This document shows, one piece after another, positions 27,932 through 56,781 of a DNA stretch of 64,000 bases. Source of the DNA: Xylona heveae TC161 (lineage: Eukaryota; Ascomycota; Xylonomycetes; Xylonales; Xylonaceae); assembly GCF_001619985.1 (NCBI RefSeq), contig NW_017264193.1, positions 1,183,726 to 1,247,725 on the forward strand. Direction: 5' to 3'. The notes under the pieces were generated by a model. That model made no database searches. It was not told the DNA's origin and was given only the letters and a program-made list of their open reading frames with translations. The translations under genes and the position numbers were made by a program. The number at the start of each line of letters is the position of its first letter. The stretch's first letter is position 1.

Positions 27932-30089
27932 TCACGAAGCAACATCACTTCCGCTCTCCTCTTCAAAGCCTTCAAATTCTCCCCCTTCAGAATCAGAGTC
28001 GTCCTGTTCTGCAGTGGAAGAAGCCGCGTCAGATTCGGGAAGCTCGTTAAGCTCCTGCCCATCATCTCGTTTTCTCTTTTTTCTCATCTCACCCAATCTA
28101 CCCTCACGGCCCTCAATATCCTTGGCCCCTTCACCTTCAGTATAGGGTGGAGGGGTGTACCATGGGATCTTTCCTCGTAGAAAGTCATTCAGCACCATTT
28201 TGGCCACGCCGTCAGTGTCCGCCTCTCCGCCCTTTAACAATCTTCCACCCTTTCTCGCCAGGACCTCCAGAAAGTCTATCGCCGAGCCCGTAATTTTGAC
28301 ATCATACGTGCGCTCAAGATGTTGCGGTTTGCACTTCTTCAAAACTGCCGCGATATACTGTTCAGGATTTTGAACATTTTCCACGCGGACAACGCCTCGA
28401 AGCAAAATGTCCTCTTCCGAATCATTTTGGTTGGGTGGCACCACACCAGGACAGTCTATGAGGTAGATTCTCTTCATGAGCGTAATGTACTGCCACACCT
28501 TTGTCTCTCCCGGAATTGGAGCGACAGTGCAGACCTTCTTCTTGCGAAGTGTATTGATGATGGAGGATTTTCCAGTGTTGGGGTAGCCGATGAAGCCGAC
28601 AGAGACTTGTTTGCGATCAGAATGTAGGGACGAAAATTGTCGAAGAAGTTGAATCAACGAGCCTTTACCAAAGGAATTCGTGATTGAAGCATGGAATGCT
28701 AGAGTTGGATAGTCTTTTGACAGATTTCGAACCCAGGCGGCCTGAAAATAATAGTGTTAGCTTCTTAGTCAAGAAACATAAGAAAACAATAAAATGTATG
28801 AAACTTTGCGTAAGGGAGACACCAAGAGCACCCGCAATAAGCAGTGATGTTTCCCTGAGAATGCTAGAGACATCCCTCAGCTCTATTCGATAATCTCCAA
28901 TACGGAGATATATCAACTTGCCAACAGAAAGCTGGCAAGCGGCGAGCTGAGGATTAATCTACCAAAGTTGTAACAGACAAGCCATCCACGGATACGCATA
29001 AAAATGCTGGAAGGCGCCTTGACTTAACAGTGGAATGTCTGTGCAAAACGGAAAAGAAATTTCCACAAGGACAAGGAGAAGAAAAACACGAAACAATTGA
29101 AGTAAAGGAATGCGACTTACAGCAACACCAGTGGGCACAAGATCGCACTTATTGAGGACGAATATCAGGTGCTTGTGAGGGGCTTCCTCCCGGATATATT
29201 TCTCAATACTCCTGCACCTTGTTCCCAGCGGATCTCTAGCGTCTAGGACATGAATGATCACATCCGAAGAGTCTATGACCTTGTAGAGCTCGTTCCATAT
29301 CCGCTTGCTTTGACCTTTCGAAAAGACCGGCTCTCTCGCTGTGGTCAAAGTCTCAACATCAAAGGCAGAATCGCCACCTTGTTCAGCCCCTTCGGAGTTA
29401 CCACTCAGCAACTTTGCCTGTTCCAAGCGGTCCAAATACGTATCGTGCATCTTTTCTGATTCTCCAGCGAGATCTTCAATGGAGCCAACAGCGAGCTTTA
29501 CCCGCTTTCGCTGCGCCTTCGGCCCAAATGTTTCAGCAAAAGGCGCTGACTCCACTGTCATTTTTGCTTGATGTTGCTTTACACCATTTACGCCTTGGCC
29601 ATCTCTGATCAAGCTCATAGGGAGCTTATTACTTTTCAGCAATACTTGATAAGGATCCGAGGCTCGTTCGGCCATGGCGTCACGGAACGAATTGAGAGCA
29701 TCCTGGCTGATGACTCTTGTATTGGTGAACCACTTCCTGTTTGGTTCAATTCGTGCATTGGGTATTTCCCGAGATTGGAATGAGGCGGCCTTTGTGACTT
29801 CTCCAGCTGCATTATGCTGAGCCTTGCCCTCTTTGAACATATTCAATTGCCTCGCTTTCTTAGCATTTCTGCGGCAAAGATTACACATGTTAGCTTGAAA
29901 ACGGTTACAAGAAGCAGACGCCGTGCTTGAAAAGCAGGACACGGGGACGTCAAGGCTGGAATGATAGCATCAATTTCTTCTCAAGACTTACCGATAGAAA
30001 TTCTCGCCCTTCGTCCGTACATTGGCCATTCCATCTCCAACCTTCCCCTGGCGCTCTCGCCTGGTAGCCTCCTTCTTTCCGGTACCCAT
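27932..30089 (-). CDS. NOG2: nucleolar GTPase NOG2 / GNL2, 60S ribosome assembly
   Basis: Three exons: 30089-29992, 29868-29121, 28741-27932, in frame, 551 aa. It opens [20 protein letters not shown] and follows yeast Nog2 closely. The GTPase motifs are circularly permuted, as in the YlqF/YawG family: G4 NKCDLVP comes before G1 GYPNTGKSS (about 334-341) and G3 DCPGVVPP. Also present are [34 protein letters not shown] and [10 protein letters not shown]. The protein acts in the nucleolus and nucleus on pre-60S particles, holding rRNA helix 69 and gating export. The C-terminus is acidic. Intron 2 is 379 nt, several times longer than other introns in the window, and hosts a probable snoRNA. The gene is divergent from PET123. 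Confidence 0.96.
28792..29036 (-). ncRNA. snR191: intronic H/ACA box snoRNA, snR191-like
   Basis: Lies within NOG2 intron 2 (29120-28742, minus). Domain 1: lower stem CCACTGTT (29033-29026) with AACTTTGG (28969-28962), pairing CCA/TGG and GTT/AAC; 5' guide AGTCA (29024-29020); upper stem with AGGC/GTCT, GCC/GGC, CCA/TGG and GCAT/ATGC; 3' guide GTTAC (28974-28970) directly after the upper stem. H box AGATTA at 28960-28955 fits ANANNA. A strong extra stem follows (28954-28944 with 28883-28872). The last domain has AGGGA...TCCCT and ACATCA/TGGTGT, ending 15 nt before an ACA at 28797-28795. The guides complement GUAAC-psi-A-UGACU, the 25S rRNA site of yeast psi2258. Yeast snR191, hosted in the NOG2 intron, guides psi2258 and psi2260. 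The second pocket's target is not assigned. Ends are estimated. Confidence 0.78.
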
Positions 30090-30529
30090 TTTGAGCTGAA
30101 AAGAAACCGGCGATGTCAAACAAGTCTTCGAGTACACAAAGTCGTGGTGGATTCAAGAGACGAGAGAAATTTCAACTTTTTTTTATCAGCCTTCGCCTAG
30201 CGATGCCAAGACCCCAGGGACCATAAAAACTCCCTGCCAGCACTAGAGGTCCGATACTTGACTGAAGAAGCGAGGTACAGATCTCAATGTACCTTATTTG
30301 CGTCTCTAGATGCAAATAATCAAAAATTCTGTGGAGATTACTGAGGCGAAGTACCTTTGAGAATAGTATCGCTTGGTATATTAATTGGAGATTGAATTTG
30401 AGAGAGACACGGCCTTTTTGATTTTGCTTAGTCATACAAAGTCATCTCTACGGGGGAAGGAAATCAATGTTGGATATTTTGATCTCGAAAGGCTCCAGAA
30501 CGCCCATCGCTGCCAGTGTCAAGTTCGCC
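30090..30529. promoter_or_regulatory. bidirectional promoter, NOG2 and PET123
   Basis: About 440 bp between two divergent starts, one for cytosolic and one for mitochondrial ribosome production. An in-frame ATG at 30467 could extend PET123. No specific factor site is asserted. Confidence 0.5.
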
Positions 30530-31444
30530 ATGACGCGAACAAAACCTTTGCTCTCTGTGCCTTCGAGGCTAGGGCAATGTCATACTTTCCTCCCTCGACA
30601 CTTCTCCACGTCCAAGGCGGCCTTCAAGATTGGTCCGGAATCGCCCAGATTTATCGAAGTTCCTCAACCAATTCAGCCGCAAGCCCCCGGGGTGCCAGTT
30701 GTAAAAGGTGTACTGCCTGTGCCTCGACAGATTTTCTCGAAGCGTGGGCCGGTGAAAACATCAAAAGCCTACTATGATAAAACTGTACCAAAACCAAACA
30801 AGCACCATCGCCATGTCGGAGCAAAGAACTCGGAAGAGTCCCATTATCTTATTTGGAAAAAACAATCGGCGGAGCTGAGAAGACGGAATTTGCGAGAAGG
30901 ACTTTTGGAATTGTCGCACAGAAAAATAAACACCGATAATATTGTTGCAGCAAGAAGCGCAGCGAAGCAGGCCGACCATCAGCGGCTCATCAATGAGCCT
31001 GAGCGGGAAGACGAACGCCTCACAAATCCTTCTATTCTGGTCTCGATGAAGCAACAGAAGATTGGCATGCTGCCTGATCCCAACCGAGAAAGCCGAATTG
31101 TCGACAAAACCTTGAAACTTCAAGAACGCCAGGCTGCGAAAGAGCAAGAACGGAAAGATCGGTTGCATACCCTTTATACTCAGGCTCGAGAATTTATCAC
31201 AACGGAGGCGCAACTCAACGAAGCCATTGACAGAACGTTTGTGGAGTACCCCGAAGAGTTCACCAGTGATGGAGGGCTTGGTGAGAACATTTGGAACAGA
31301 GGGTCACCTGAGACAGTTCAGCAGATGCTGAATGAGATCAATAGAACCGGAAGCAATGCAATCAAGCATTACACCGGTGTGGGAGATATTACTCAGAAGC
31401 GTGTTCGGAGAATTGCGGAAGAATTGACCGGCGGTCGATTGTAA
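30530..31444 (+). CDS. PET123: mitoribosomal small-subunit protein Pet123 / mS26
   Basis: Single exon. The ATG at 30530 gives 304 aa starting MTRTKPLLSVPSRLGQ, a basic, hydroxylated, non-acidic stretch that reads as a mitochondrial presequence. An in-frame ATG at 30467 would give 325 aa but has a poorer context. The core block YYDKTVPKPNKHHRHVGAKN and a long charged helical region (RIVDKTLKLQERQAAKEQERKDR) are typical of fungal Pet123 (37S subunit). The C-terminus (NAIKHYTGVGDITQKRVRRIAEEL) is basic. It is needed for mitochondrial translation in yeast. Confidence 0.85.
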   Translation: MTRTKPLLSVPSRLGQCHTFLPRHFSTSKAAFKIGPESPRFIEVPQPIQPQAPGVPVVKGVLPVPRQIFSKRGPVKTSKAYYDKTVPKPNKHHRHVGAKNSEESHYLIWKKQSAELRRRNLREGLLELSHRKINTDNIVAARSAAKQADHQRLINEPEREDERLTNPSILVSMKQQKIGMLPDPNRESRIVDKTLKLQERQAAKEQERKDRLHTLYTQAREFITTEAQLNEAIDRTFVEYPEEFTSDGGLGENIWNRGSPETVQQMLNEINRTGSNAIKHYTGVGDITQKRVRRIAEELTGGRL

Positions 31445-44226: not shown

Positions 44227-47200
44227 TTATTTTATCAAATCTTTGAACCGCTCCCGTTCAGTGACGATCTGAGCCTGCAGTCGTCTAGTCTGTCTCATAG
44301 CTTCGTCCCTATAATTATTGAGCGACGAGTTAGCTGCAAGTAGGGGAAAAAAAAAGAGAAAAGAGTAAAGAGTCGATTCCGCATAGGTTTGTAAAAGTGA
44401 AGAGTATCACGTACCTTGCCGTTTGCAATTCGGCGACTTCAATCTGAGCCATATTCATCCGGCCGACTACTTCCTCCATCTCGCGATCCGCATCCCCCAA
44501 GGCTTTTTCTAACTCGCGAACTCGCTTCTCCAAGGAATCGGCTTTCGTAGCTTCCGCCATGGTAATACCGAGCCCACTCGTTGTAATATCTAACTTGGGG
44601 GACTTTGTCAAGAACAACGGCGATACAGGCATCGTGGGAGAAAACTTGGATGGGGTCAAAAGGCCGGCCTTGATGAGCTGCATTTGAACACGATGCGTCT
44701 CATTGAGTTCGCGCACCTCGTCTTCGTGCTGAGTGATTATCTCCTCGGAATGATGCTGCGCCGACATGACCTTGTCTTCGAGGGTTTTGAGCTTGTCCTG
44801 CACTTCGGTGATTCTCGCCGCCGAGGCCTTCTGGGCATATTCGCCGCGGCCAACGGCGTCGGCCAGGCGTTGTCGGAGATTGTTGTTTGAATCAAGTTGC
44901 TGCCGAATTTGAATAGAGAGCTCTTCGACGCGCCGAGCAGAGTCTCGGAGCTGCGTAGCCAGTGATTGCTCTTCGCCCATATATCCCCTCTCAGCCTCCT
45001 CAAGTGACTCGGCATGAAGGCGATAGGCTTCGGCTTGTCTTTGTGCTAGGTCCCTTTCCGCCTCTGCATCTGAAATGCTTCGTAACAAAAGATCCATTGT
45101 ATTCGCAGCCTCCTCGCTGGCCGTAGCCAAGGGCGCATCGCCGTGGAGTTCTCGAATACGAGCTACGGAGAGCGCATGGGTCGTCTGCAGTTCCCGATAC
45201 GCCTTTTCGAGAGAAGCCGATGTTGCTTGACTCGAAGCAACAATGTCCACATCCTCCTCAGCAGAACCCTGCTGGCTCTCGTCAAGGGTCGCGGACTTCG
45301 CATTTTGTTCAGGGTTGAGAATGTCTTGCTCCTGCAAGAGCAAGCGTAGGGTGCCCGTCTCTTGCTCAGCCCGGTCGAGATCAATCTTGATTCCGCTTAA
45401 TCCCTTCTCACACTGCCACTTTTGTTCGAGTGCATCATCGGCTCGTCTGCGAAGCTGATTGATCTCGCGACGAACCACAGAAACTTCCTGGTGGTACGCG
45501 CGACGGCGGAATGATCCCGATAAAGCGCGATCTCGCTCCATTTCGAGTGCTCTAATACGCTTTTGGGATTGTGATGCTTGATATTCTTGTCTCTGAATCA
45601 TGCTCTTCAAGGCCTCGTGGAGGGCATCCCTTTGAGCTTCAACGTCCTTGACTCGTTCATTCGCGGCCTCGCGAGGCTCCTGTTCACGTACAGAGCTGGA
45701 CCGTGTCAACGAGCTGGACCGTTTCGTCGGGGCTCTGCTGCCAGCGACAGTACCTCGTGCGAGCGAGTTCGATCGCGTCAGACCCATCCGGGATCGATGA
45801 AGGTCAGCTTGTGAAAAGCCTTCTTCAGCAATCGAGTTGATAGATGAGCGTTGCGCTGACGAGCTCTGCGTTTGCTGGAGACTCTCTGCCCGCGTTCTCT
45901 TTGCGTTGGCCAAAATCTTGTGCTCTTCCTGAAGAGATCTCAATTCCGCATGCTGCCGTTGGTACTGTTGCTGTTGAAGATCGAGCTCTCTATCCTTTGC
46001 TGCCAGAAGAGCCTCATTTTGGTCTTTAAGAAGCTCCTGCTCACGCTGCTGCTGCTGAAGTTGCTTCTCTAATTGCAATTGTAGCTCTCTTGCTACCTCG
46101 AGCGCGTCGAGATGATCTGGCAATGAGCGCGCGTCCCTGGCTTCCTCAAAAGCCAACTTTTCTTCTTTAAGCATCTGCAATTCCTGTTCTTGTTGGTGGA
46201 GTTGGCCCTGCAAAGTCTCTTGCATCTGCTCTGCTAAAGTAAGCGCCTCGGTATGGTCGGAAGGCGTAAAAGCTTCCTTGGCGCTAATGAGAGCTTGTTT
46301 TTCCTCCTGAAGTGCGTCGAGCTCTTGTTGCTGCCGCTGGAGCTGTTCGTGCACAGACGTATGTGTTTCGCTCGCAACCGTGAGTGCTTCATTCTCTTCT
46401 CTTACGGACCGCAGCTCCAGCTGCTGTTGCTCGAGCTGCTCTTGCAAGTTCGTGTTCGTTTCGCGGAGCATGGTGAGGGCTTCAATCTCCTCCCGGAAAG
46501 AGTACAAAGCTTCTTCGTGCTCCCGCTGGAGTCGAACTCGAGACTCTCTCAGATCCTCGTTCTCCTCCCTTAGAGCCTGTAGCTCCTGTTCATGGTGTTC
46601 TAACCTTTGCACGAGATCAGAATGAAGCTTCTCCGAAGAAACAGCAACCGCATCTTCCTCGGCATCCAAGGCTAGCAGAATATTTTCGCCGTCTTCGTCC
46701 GGGCTTCGAGATGCGCCCTCTTGAACTGTCTTGCCTGCATTCGACAGCGCCAAATTTTCTTCTCGCAATGATTGGAGCTCTCCCTGATACCGTTCTAGCT
46801 CGTACTTCAAATCAACATGTGTCCCATTCTCGTCAATTAGAGTTTTCTTTTCTTGCTCCAGAGCCTGGAGAGCTTGCTGGTGCTGTCGCTGCTGTTGCTC
46901 GTGAAGGTCCGACTGCATGTGCTTCGCATCAGAAAGTGCGATGTTTTCTTCTTTGAGCGATTGCATTTCTTGTTGCATGCGAGTATATTCGTATGCTAAT
47001 TTTTGTGATTCAGCTACAGCGGCCTCGAGCCCTTCGACCTGCGACTTTAGTGACGGGACAATTTCCTCACGCAGGTTGTCTCGTTCGTTCCGATGGCCTT
47101 CTAATTCTTCGCGAAGAGCAGAGACAAGATCCTCAAAGTTTTCTTTGACCAGACGCTCCTCGGCGAGACGCCGACGAACATCCTCCAGAGAAGCTTCAAG

Positions 47201-54652: not shown

Positions 54653-56781
54653 TCAAGAAAGCTTTTCAAGCAGAATCTTAGCTCCCTTGTTGGAGTGCTG
54701 GGCAGGCGGGTTCTTTGCGCTCTTGCCGTCTTTGCTAGAGCCCTTTTTGCTTTCCGCGGACACCTTAGAGCGAGGCGGACTCGCTGCGGCTTCTAGAGCT
54801 TTCTTTCCCTTCTTCAACAACTTCAAGAGACCATCTTTTTCTGAAAATCCGTCGGCTTCAACAAGCCCTACAACGACAAATGAACTTGGGCCGGTTGCCC
54901 AGTCAAGGATATGGTCCTTGATTCGCTCATAGAGGATGTTGTGAAAATTGAGAGGAGGATCTACCCTCACAACCTCTTTCGTTTTGCTGTTGAAATGGCC
55001 TTCTTGTACCAAAGTCTTGAGCATCCTGCCGACAGCGGGAGACTGCGCAACGTGACCCTCTTTTCCTGGATTACCAACTGCTTGATCCGCAACGGCGTCC
55101 AGAGCTGCTTCTTTATCTCCATCACAGCCGAGCAAGAGCTCAGTAACAAATTGGCATCCGAACGATGTCTCCAACATCGTACTTGCGTGAGACTGCGTCA
55201 CGCTAAGTAAGGTAGGGGAGATTGCGCGGATCAATTCCCGTCGGCGAAGATTGCTATCTTTCTTGGAGGTCGAAGCGCGAATCTGATCAATCTCTTCCAA
55301 TACAGCCACATCCTCGGGTGGCAAAAGCCACACGGCTTTGTCGGCAAATAGGTACAGGAGAGGAATTCTGGCGTTAAGACTGACAACGCAGGCCAGAACC
55401 GCATCAGCTTGAGTCTCCGGTGCCGCATCCTTTCCAAGGAGCTCAGGAAATATGGATTTCGATGTCAACACCGTATCATCGATCACATCGTATGCTGCCA
55501 ACAGGATCTGATGACCGAAACTATCGAAAGCTAGATCAACAATGAGATCTTTGTAGAACTTCAGAATTTGCTTTCTGTCCTTTGCACTTCCATATGCCAA
55601 TGCCAAGCAAACAACTCTGGCTCCTGACTTCGTGAAAGCCAAATTCTTGAGAAGTCCTCCTTCTTCGTCTCCTTTCAAGAGTTCAAGAAACTCGTTGGCC
55701 TCGTGTGAGCCAGGTTTCGTGTTAAGGAAATACTGTAGCATTGCATCATGAAGAATTGTAAAGCCGGTCATTCGCTTTTGAGCAAGCAGATTAATCAATT
55801 CATGCATGTATTGCATCACAGGAGCACGCTTTTCTGGATTGTGCGAGAGTATGACTGACAGGTCCGAAGTCGGTTGTTGCTCGTTGTTCGTCTTGAAAAT
55901 AGCATATTCTGGTCCATACCATTCACGGAGAAGGCAAGCTTTTTGCCGAGGGGTAGCAATGCCTCGATAGATATCATCAAGAATCCATGATGCTTCTGGA
56001 TGTTTAATGAGGCGGCGGACATGGCCGTAAAATTCAGGTACAATTATATCTCTGACTTCAGCATCGCTATAGTGATTGTCAGCCTCAAATTCTAATTTGA
56101 TTTAATGCCTATCCCTACTTACCCATGCACAAGCAATTTTCCAACCAGAAATTTGGCGTAACGCCCTTCTGCCAGGGTGCAGTATTCGCCTTTCAGTTCG
56201 CGGGCGATCATCTTTCTCTGCTCGAGAGTGGCATACTTCAAAGCTGTCTGAATGACGCGTACAGAATCGTGCTTGAGGACGAAGTCCTTCACTCGGCCAG
56301 TAATGATATCATAAAGCTCGGCCACGAGCTCCTTTCTCTCGTCGCGAGGGACATGGGACTTGCGGCGTAAGCGTTCCCATAGTTTCTTCGATCGCTGAAT
56401 AATATCAGAATTAGGTTTCGCAGATTTGCGCTCCTGTGCGAGAGCCTTCTGTTTTGCGTGCGACTCTCTTGACGAATTTCCTGATTGTTTATGAGCCTAA
56501 AGAATTGCATTCGACGCTCCCTTCTTACCTGTGGGCTTTCCTTTCTTTGAGCCTTCTTCATCATTTTTGCTTTCCTTCTCTATGCTCAAAGTAGAAGAGC
56601 CATCATCAGAAGAGCTTTCCTGGTCACTGAGTCCCTCAAAATCATCGGAGACTGAATTAGACTCCAAACTCTGGATCTTGGAGGGCTTTGCGGTGGATTT
56701 TTCAACTTTGACCTTCTTGCTTTTTGCTTCACTGGAAACCCTTGCGGCCTCCGAGGCTCCTTTGCGCTTGAGATTGGCCAT
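54653..56781 (-). CDS. PUF6: PUF6-family Pumilio/CPL-domain ribosome biogenesis protein
   Basis: Three exons: 56781-56529, 56480-56123, 56066-54653, in frame, 674 aa. The first intron is only 48 nt (GTAAGAAGG...AATCAG). The N-terminus is basic then acidic, like other nucleolar proteins. From about 100 the Pumilio-like helical repeats begin (LWERLRRKSHVPRDERKELVAEL, DSVRVIQTALKYA, GRYAKFLVGKLL), continuing to about 420. A CPL domain follows (PLLYLFADKAVWLLPPEDVAVLEEID, FGCQFVTELLLG), and the C-terminus is Lys/Ser-rich. Yeast Puf6 binds pre-60S and ASH1 mRNA. Sits tail-side of Cus2 on the same strand. Confidence 0.9.

What the first reader, a model, noticed from the sequence alone, without database searches (positions are those of the whole stretch)
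28742..29120. NOG2 intron hosts an H/ACA snoRNA with guides for the universal 25S psi2258 site
Seen: the intron is 379 nt while other introns here are mostly 44-125 nt. Its first domain forms a standard H/ACA hairpin with guides AGTCA and GTTAC flanking the upper stem, then an AGATTA H box, then a last hairpin 15 nt before an ACA. The guides complement GUAAC-psi-A-UGACU exactly (10 pairs). Known: yeast snR191 sits in the NOG2 intron and directs psi2258 and psi2260. Inference: host-guest linkage is conserved from budding yeast to this filamentous fungus. The ribosome-assembly GTPase and an RNA that modifies the particle it acts on are made from one transcript.
Basis: partly seen in the sequence, partly recalled or inferred. 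Interest (0 to 1): 0.8.

Follow-up and report, generated by a model that had tools for sequence, protein, structure and literature searches.

The report
snR191 snoRNA in fungal NOG2 intron
A long intron in a fungal ribosome-assembly gene carries a small guide RNA (snR191) predicted to direct a chemical mark on ribosomal RNA; this arrangement is already described across fungi, but this copy seems to have lost one of its two usual guide pockets.

Summary
Intron 2 of NOG2 (29120-28742, minus strand, 379 nt) contains an H/ACA snoRNA. Rfam snR191 (RF01263) is the one family over its threshold in the 64 kb window, only just (46.4 bits, cut-off 46, E 2.3e-7). The psi2258 guides AGUCA/GUUAC sit 14 nt before the H box AGAUUA: 1 such place on both strands of the window; 20 of 20,000 intron shuffles have one.

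A second fungal NOG2 gene, contamination in a bacterial MAG (L001), has the intron at the same place, with identical guides and compensatory changes in the middle domain.

The claimed host-guest conservation is already in print: Lim et al. 2021 report the NOG2 intron position in 72% of fungi and name snR191. Trichophyton rubrum has a 251-nt intronic cDNA of the family.

Beyond the finding: the second pocket (GAGU/UAGU, fitting psi2260), present in the Rfam consensus and L001, is not recognisable here. So this copy probably guides psi2258 only. Whole-RNA minimum-energy folds do not show the full canonical layout. Expression and modification were not testable.

The parts
28742..29120 (-). NOG2 intron 2 (379 nt, phase 0), host intron
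   Evidence: GTAAGT/TTTCAG; splicing gives an open 551-aa frame with NGP1NT and MMR_HSR1 domains and best PDB match Nucleolar GTP-binding protein 2
28792..29035 (-). snR191 H/ACA snoRNA, predicted 244 nt
   Evidence: Rfam RF01263, 46.4 bits. Start is Rfam's; Rfam's own match ends at 28840. The 3' end used here was set by me from the ACA shared with L001
29020..29024 (-). 5' guide arm AGUCA, pairs UGACU after psi2258
28970..28974 (-). 3' guide arm GUUAC, pairs GUAAC before psi2258
28955..28960 (-). H box AGAUUA, 14 nt from the pocket
28875..28952 (-). middle domain: 9-pair closing stem plus two hairpins (three-way junction); similar layout in L001 and in the Rfam consensus
   Evidence: 6 two-sided compensatory changes in 20 pairs registered by hand against L001; closing stem present in the whole-RNA fold, 9 of 9 pairs
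28798..28873 (-). 3' hairpin; pocket letters AUUCUC (28862-28857) and UAC (28812-28810), not the psi2260 guides GAGU/UAGU
   Evidence: fold of this stretch alone; in the whole-RNA fold its lower part pairs elsewhere
28795..28797 (-). ACA box
   Evidence: UUCAUACAU shared with L001

Best explanation
This is the orthologue of snR191, an H/ACA snoRNA made from the spliced NOG2 intron. After splicing, debranching and trimming, about 244 nt should remain, bound by the H/ACA proteins. Its 5' pocket pairs with 25S helix 69 on both sides of U2258 (yeast numbering) and presents that uridine to the pseudouridine synthase. Shown here: the family match, the guides, boxes and spacing, folds of the separate domains, and conservation in a second fungus. 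Inferred: expression, ends, trimming, protein binding and modification. In this copy the 3' pocket no longer carries a recognisable psi2260 guide, so it most likely guides psi2258 alone.
For: RF01263 is the one family over its gathering score in the window. The 10-pair bipartite guide lies 14 nt from the H box: 1 such place in 64 kb on both strands, 20 of 20,000 shuffles. L001 has the intron at the same place in the protein, the same guide arms and, with ends set as described under parts, 243 against 244 nt and 50 nt to the 3' splice site in both. Hairpins A and B of the middle domain have 6 two-sided compensatory changes, 12 unchanged pairs and 2 pairs formed only in the window, of 20 counted. 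A 251-nt intronic cDNA of the same Rfam family is in print for Trichophyton rubrum, host gene not named in the passage (PMC3890542).
Against: The Rfam score is barely over the cut-off, and its alignment ends 48 nt short of the 3' end used here. L001 scores 43.0, under the cut-off of 46. L001's H box reads AGAUUG, not strict ANANNA, so box-requiring scans miss its psi2258 guide. The minimum-energy fold of the whole 244 nt keeps the base of the 5' upper stem (4 of 4) but not the 5' lower stem (0 of 3): AACUUUG pairs instead with CAAAGUU near the ACA (7 of 7). The whole intron loses the base of the 5' upper stem too (0 of 4), and L001's whole-RNA fold also lacks it (0 of 4). I therefore rely on folds of single domains. 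The middle closing stem is not column-matched between the two species and was not counted. The 10 pairs counted in the 5' hairpin are unchanged and say nothing by covariation. Only two sequences could be compared.
Confidence: 0.95

Rival explanations
1. The 3' pocket still guides psi2260 through weak, mismatched or bulged pairing, or through a pocket I did not model, so this is a full two-site snR191.
For: The family consensus has the second pocket, and the ACA end is conserved. One 3-base arm, UAG at 28866-28864, lies 16 nt before another ACA at 28850.
Against: For U2260 no pair of ungapped arms of at least 3+3 and 8 in total exists in the intron, with or without a box (0 and 0). L001 has 5 with a box, all sharing the UAGU arm, one of them GAGU/UAGU in its predicted pocket. 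A mismatch-tolerant scan (8 of 10 or better) at the ACA of 28797 printed 10 candidates, none for U2260; the best was 9 of 10 for U2258 at 17 nt, with its 5' arm away from the hairpin base. The window letters at the matching place are CUC(A) and UAC(G).
Confidence: 0.25
2. The 3' pocket has been retargeted to another RNA, of the form GUA-psi-N-GAGAAU.
For: Folded alone, the hairpin has a pocket and an AUG/CAU lower stem directly before the ACA.
Against: No fungal rRNA or snRNA was available to search for such a target; the arms may simply have drifted; the lower stem is not in the whole-RNA fold.
Confidence: 0.2
3. The long intron is an ordinary structured or chance-folding intron without a snoRNA.
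For: The Rfam score is marginal and the whole-RNA fold is not canonical.
Against: The combined guide, box, fold-energy and cross-species evidence.
Confidence: 0.02

Closest known systems
snR191 of Saccharomyces cerevisiae (Rfam RF01263), intron of NOG2
   Same: Host gene, H/ACA type, psi2258 guide and H box (Rfam alignment), middle domain with branched hairpins, ACA end
   Different: About 244 nt here against 274 nt given for yeast in PMC12389098 (passage); the GAGU/UAGU pocket of the family consensus is not recognisable here
snR191 homologues in filamentous fungi: Sporothrix schenckii and Cyphellophora europaea (PMC8476143, figure legend and passages), Trichophyton rubrum Trnc_4006 (PMC3890542, passages)
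   Same: H/ACA snoRNA in the NOG2 intron (the first two), or in an intron whose gene the passage does not name (Trnc_4006, 251 nt)
   Different: Trnc_4006 has three predicted targets (18S 935, 25S 1239, 25S 2245), of which I could not place 2245 on yeast numbering
L001, fungal NOG2 locus on a contig filed under a Deltaproteobacteria MAG (NYXK01000235.1)
   Same: Same intron position, same 5' guides, 243 nt, 50 nt to the 3' splice site
   Different: Keeps the psi2260-type pocket; H box AGAUUG; Rfam score under the cut-off

Membership tests
snR191 (RF01263) | Covariance model match over the gathering score | tested here: met
   46.4 against 46 bits
snR191 (RF01263) | 5' pocket complementary to both sides of U2258, 14-16 nt before the H box | tested here: met
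   5+5 pairs, 14 nt; same with the 28S letters printed in PMC12180492
snR191 (RF01263) | Second pocket (GAGU/UAGU) for U2260, 14 nt before the ACA | tested here: not met
   Not found in the window copy; present in L001 and in the Rfam consensus. I treat this as divergence within the family, since orthology rests on place, 5' domain and model score; 'guides both sites' is not claimed for this copy
snR191 (RF01263) | Location in the NOG2 intron (usual, not universal: Candida parapsilosis has it elsewhere, PMC5033589) | tested here: met
Box H/ACA snoRNA | H box ANANNA and ACA box 3 nt before the 3' end | tested here: met
   AGAUUA and ACA in the DNA; the RNA end itself is inferred
Box H/ACA snoRNA | Hairpin-hinge-hairpin-tail fold | tested here: inconclusive
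   Seen when domains are folded alone, not in full in the whole-RNA minimum-energy fold
Box H/ACA snoRNA | Binds the H/ACA core proteins and accumulates as a stable RNA | not testable with these tools
   needs RNA data

The most novel reading that the evidence does not exclude
In this fungal lineage the NOG2-hosted snR191 has lost its psi2260 guide and become a one-site guide (or its 3' pocket has been retargeted), so the second of the two helix-69 pseudouridines is either missing or made by another guide.
Probability: 0.6. Interest if true: 0.3.

Novelty: new member of a known kind. Interest (0 to 1): 0.2.

Why it matters
It adds one more case of a ribosome-assembly gene that also encodes an RNA predicted to modify the same subunit. 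If the loss of the second guide is real, it offers a natural test of whether two of the most conserved rRNA pseudouridines are needed together.

Tried and rejected
No whole genome is held for the window, so the fungus's own 25S rRNA could not be searched. A 37-base 28S pattern gave 0 matches in viral contigs; its first letter was mis-recalled, and a 34-base pattern with the printed letters also gave 0. NOG2 gave 1 relative in genome contigs (of 40 stretches that matched a pattern) and 0 in viral contigs (of 2). The genome behind L001 has 0 matches to a 26-base target pattern with up to 2 mismatches and 1 snR191 match, at the place of L001. A paper search for helix 69 with Aspergillus and snoRNA found 0 papers. 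Canzler et al. 2018 (PMC5824354) and Badis et al. 2003 (PMC1370443) are not held. The Neurospora crassa table (PMC2780460, section 5 read) lists 20 H/ACA snoRNAs and names snR191 for none; its abstract calls the list not exhaustive. An ACA at 28850 as the true 3' end was considered, because Rfam's alignment ends at 28840, and rejected: 24 nt would separate it from the middle stem without a canonical pocket, whereas the ACA at 28797 aligns with that of L001. In one search a text look-up for the 3' upper stem hit an earlier AGGGA and reported 0 of 5; the dot-bracket line of the same call shows that stem formed, so the 0 is an error of my script.

Full report
What is there. The minus-strand gene starting at 30089 encodes a 551-residue protein once two introns are removed (29991-29869, 123 nt; 29120-28742, 379 nt). 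Pfam gives NGP1NT and MMR_HSR1 over their cut-offs, and the best solved-structure match by sequence is Nucleolar GTP-binding protein 2 in entry 8pv1. The gene is therefore NOG2, and the second intron is the one flagged.

The intron holds an snR191 snoRNA. A scan of the whole window against 4227 Rfam families gave one match over a gathering score: RF01263, snR191, 29035-28840, 46.4 bits against 46, E 2.3e-7. A permissive scan of the window added one sub-threshold U3 match elsewhere. The intron folds better than all 100 shuffles, z -4.81.

The guides are as described. AGUCA ends at 29020 directly before the upper stem. GUUAC starts at 28974 directly after it. The H box AGAUUA begins 14 nt on. 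Requiring 5+5 Watson-Crick pairs and a box at 14-16 nt, both strands of the window hold 1 place, this one. Of 20,000 dinucleotide shuffles of the intron, 445 have the arms and 20 have arms plus box. The target letters were first recalled; GUAACUAUGACUCUCUUAAGGUAGCC was then seen (as DNA) in one passage of PMC12180492, a vertebrate R2 substrate. Bases just upstream of it had been recalled wrongly; a rescan with the printed letters left the guides unchanged.

A second fungus. NOG2 as a query found one relative in genome contigs, L001, on a contig filed under a Deltaproteobacteria MAG. The gene has introns, and its two protein segments are 67% and 75% identical to ours, so I read the contig as fungal contamination. 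Its intron (329 nt) interrupts the same place in the protein and matches snR191 at 43.0 bits, under the cut-off of 46, E 2.5e-7 in that search. The guide arms AGUCA and GUUAC are identical. With starts from Rfam, the L001 end from Rfam and the window end set by the shared ACA, the RNAs are 243 and 244 nt and both end 50 nt before the end of the intron. Identity in the MAFFT alignment (A1) falls from 59 of 82 columns in the 5' domain to 43 of 81 in the middle and 41 of 82 in the 3' domain. In two hairpins of the middle domain, aligned by hand from the predicted folds, 6 of 20 pairs changed on both sides and stayed paired, 12 are unchanged and 2 are paired in the window only. One pair of hairpin B in each sequence without a counterpart was left out, and the closing stem, which exists in both folds but in different columns, was not counted. 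L001's H box is AGAUUG, an imperfect ANANNA, so scans that require a box do not return its psi2258 guide.

A caution on the fold. The domain folds show the pockets. The minimum-energy fold of the whole 244 nt keeps the middle domain (9 of 9 closing pairs) and the base of the 5' upper stem (4 of 4) but not the 5' lower stem (0 of 3); AACUUUG next to the 5' pocket pairs with CAAAGUU near the ACA (7 of 7) instead. In the fold of the whole intron the base of the 5' upper stem is also absent (0 of 4), as it is in the folds of L001's RNA and intron (0 of 4 each). Free-RNA minimum-energy folds of H/ACA RNAs need not equal the protein-bound form (general knowledge), but the canonical layout is thus not shown by thermodynamics alone.

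The second pocket differs. In the Rfam consensus the 3' hairpin has unpaired GAGU and UAGUA around its upper stem, the latter 14 nt before the ACA. GAGU and UAGU fit the two sides of U2260 by 4+4 pairs. L001 keeps both, and the unconstrained fold of its 3' domain leaves them in the pocket. The window copy does not: at the same places it reads CUC(A) and UAC(G). A scan for U2260 guides with ungapped arms of at least 3+3 and 8 in total found 0 in this intron, with or without a box; L001 has 5 with a box, all using the UAGU arm. A looser look found three 3-base 3' arms in the window copy, each with at best a 3-base 5' arm. Folded alone, the window's 3' hairpin has a lower stem AUG/CAU directly before the ACA at 28797. 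I take this as a probable loss, or retargeting, of the psi2260 guide in this lineage. One genome cannot tell which, nor when.

What is known. Lim et al. 2021 (PMC8476143, abstract, legend and passages) report NOG2 intron positions conserved in eight intron-poor fungi, including Sporothrix schenckii and Cyphellophora europaea, with H/ACA snoRNAs in the intron (one species, Meira miltonrushii, with low confidence for its second stem-loop), and the position kept in 72% of fungi species; they also suggest functional coordination of host and guest. Trichophyton rubrum Trnc_4006 is a 251-nt intronic RNA filed under RF01263 (PMC3890542, passages). In Candida parapsilosis and C. orthopsilosis snR191 is no longer in NOG2 (PMC5033589, passage). 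Removing the yeast NOG2 intron gave a growth defect (glycerol medium, 37 C) without changing NOG2 mRNA or protein (PMC10667330, passages). Hooks et al. 2016 report snR191 orthologues in all Saccharomycotina and, in the passages seen and unlike for snR44, do not mention Pezizomycotina for it (PMC4937481), and the Neurospora table names no snR191 homologue.

On the second-guide loss: I found no report of it, but the search was shallow. A search for snR191 with 2260 listed 7 papers; I saw passages of two of these (PMC12389098, PMC8476143) and only the listing of the other five. Other listings seen are (the last found no paper). Canzler et al. 2018, the likeliest place, is not held. So this is not a claim that it is unpublished.

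Verdict. A correct and well-read observation of a known system; a new member with one informative difference.

Noticed in passing
window 45403-45503, minus strand: Sub-threshold Rfam U3 match (26.3 bits, cut-off 34) inside a 974-residue open frame with a DUF7603 domain; most likely chance.
   Followed up: partly
L001 (NYXK01000235.1, 66149-74217): A fungal NOG2 gene with introns and an snR191 homologue sits on a contig filed under a Deltaproteobacteria MAG: apparent eukaryote contamination in a prokaryote genome collection.
   Followed up: partly
window 30467-31444, plus strand, and 30089, minus strand: A 325-residue open frame without a Pfam match at E 0.001 lies head to head with NOG2, with 377 bases between the two start codons.
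   Followed up: no
window 54653-55816, minus strand: An open frame with a CPL (NUC119) domain, recalled as typical of Puf6-type ribosome-assembly proteins, lies in the same window.
   Followed up: no
window 28969-28963 and 28808-28802, minus strand: AACUUUG beside the psi2258 pocket is complementary to CAAAGUU near the ACA, 7 of 7 pairs in the whole-RNA fold; it would compete with the 5' lower stem, and L001 lacks the CAAAGUU partner at the matching place.
   Followed up: partly
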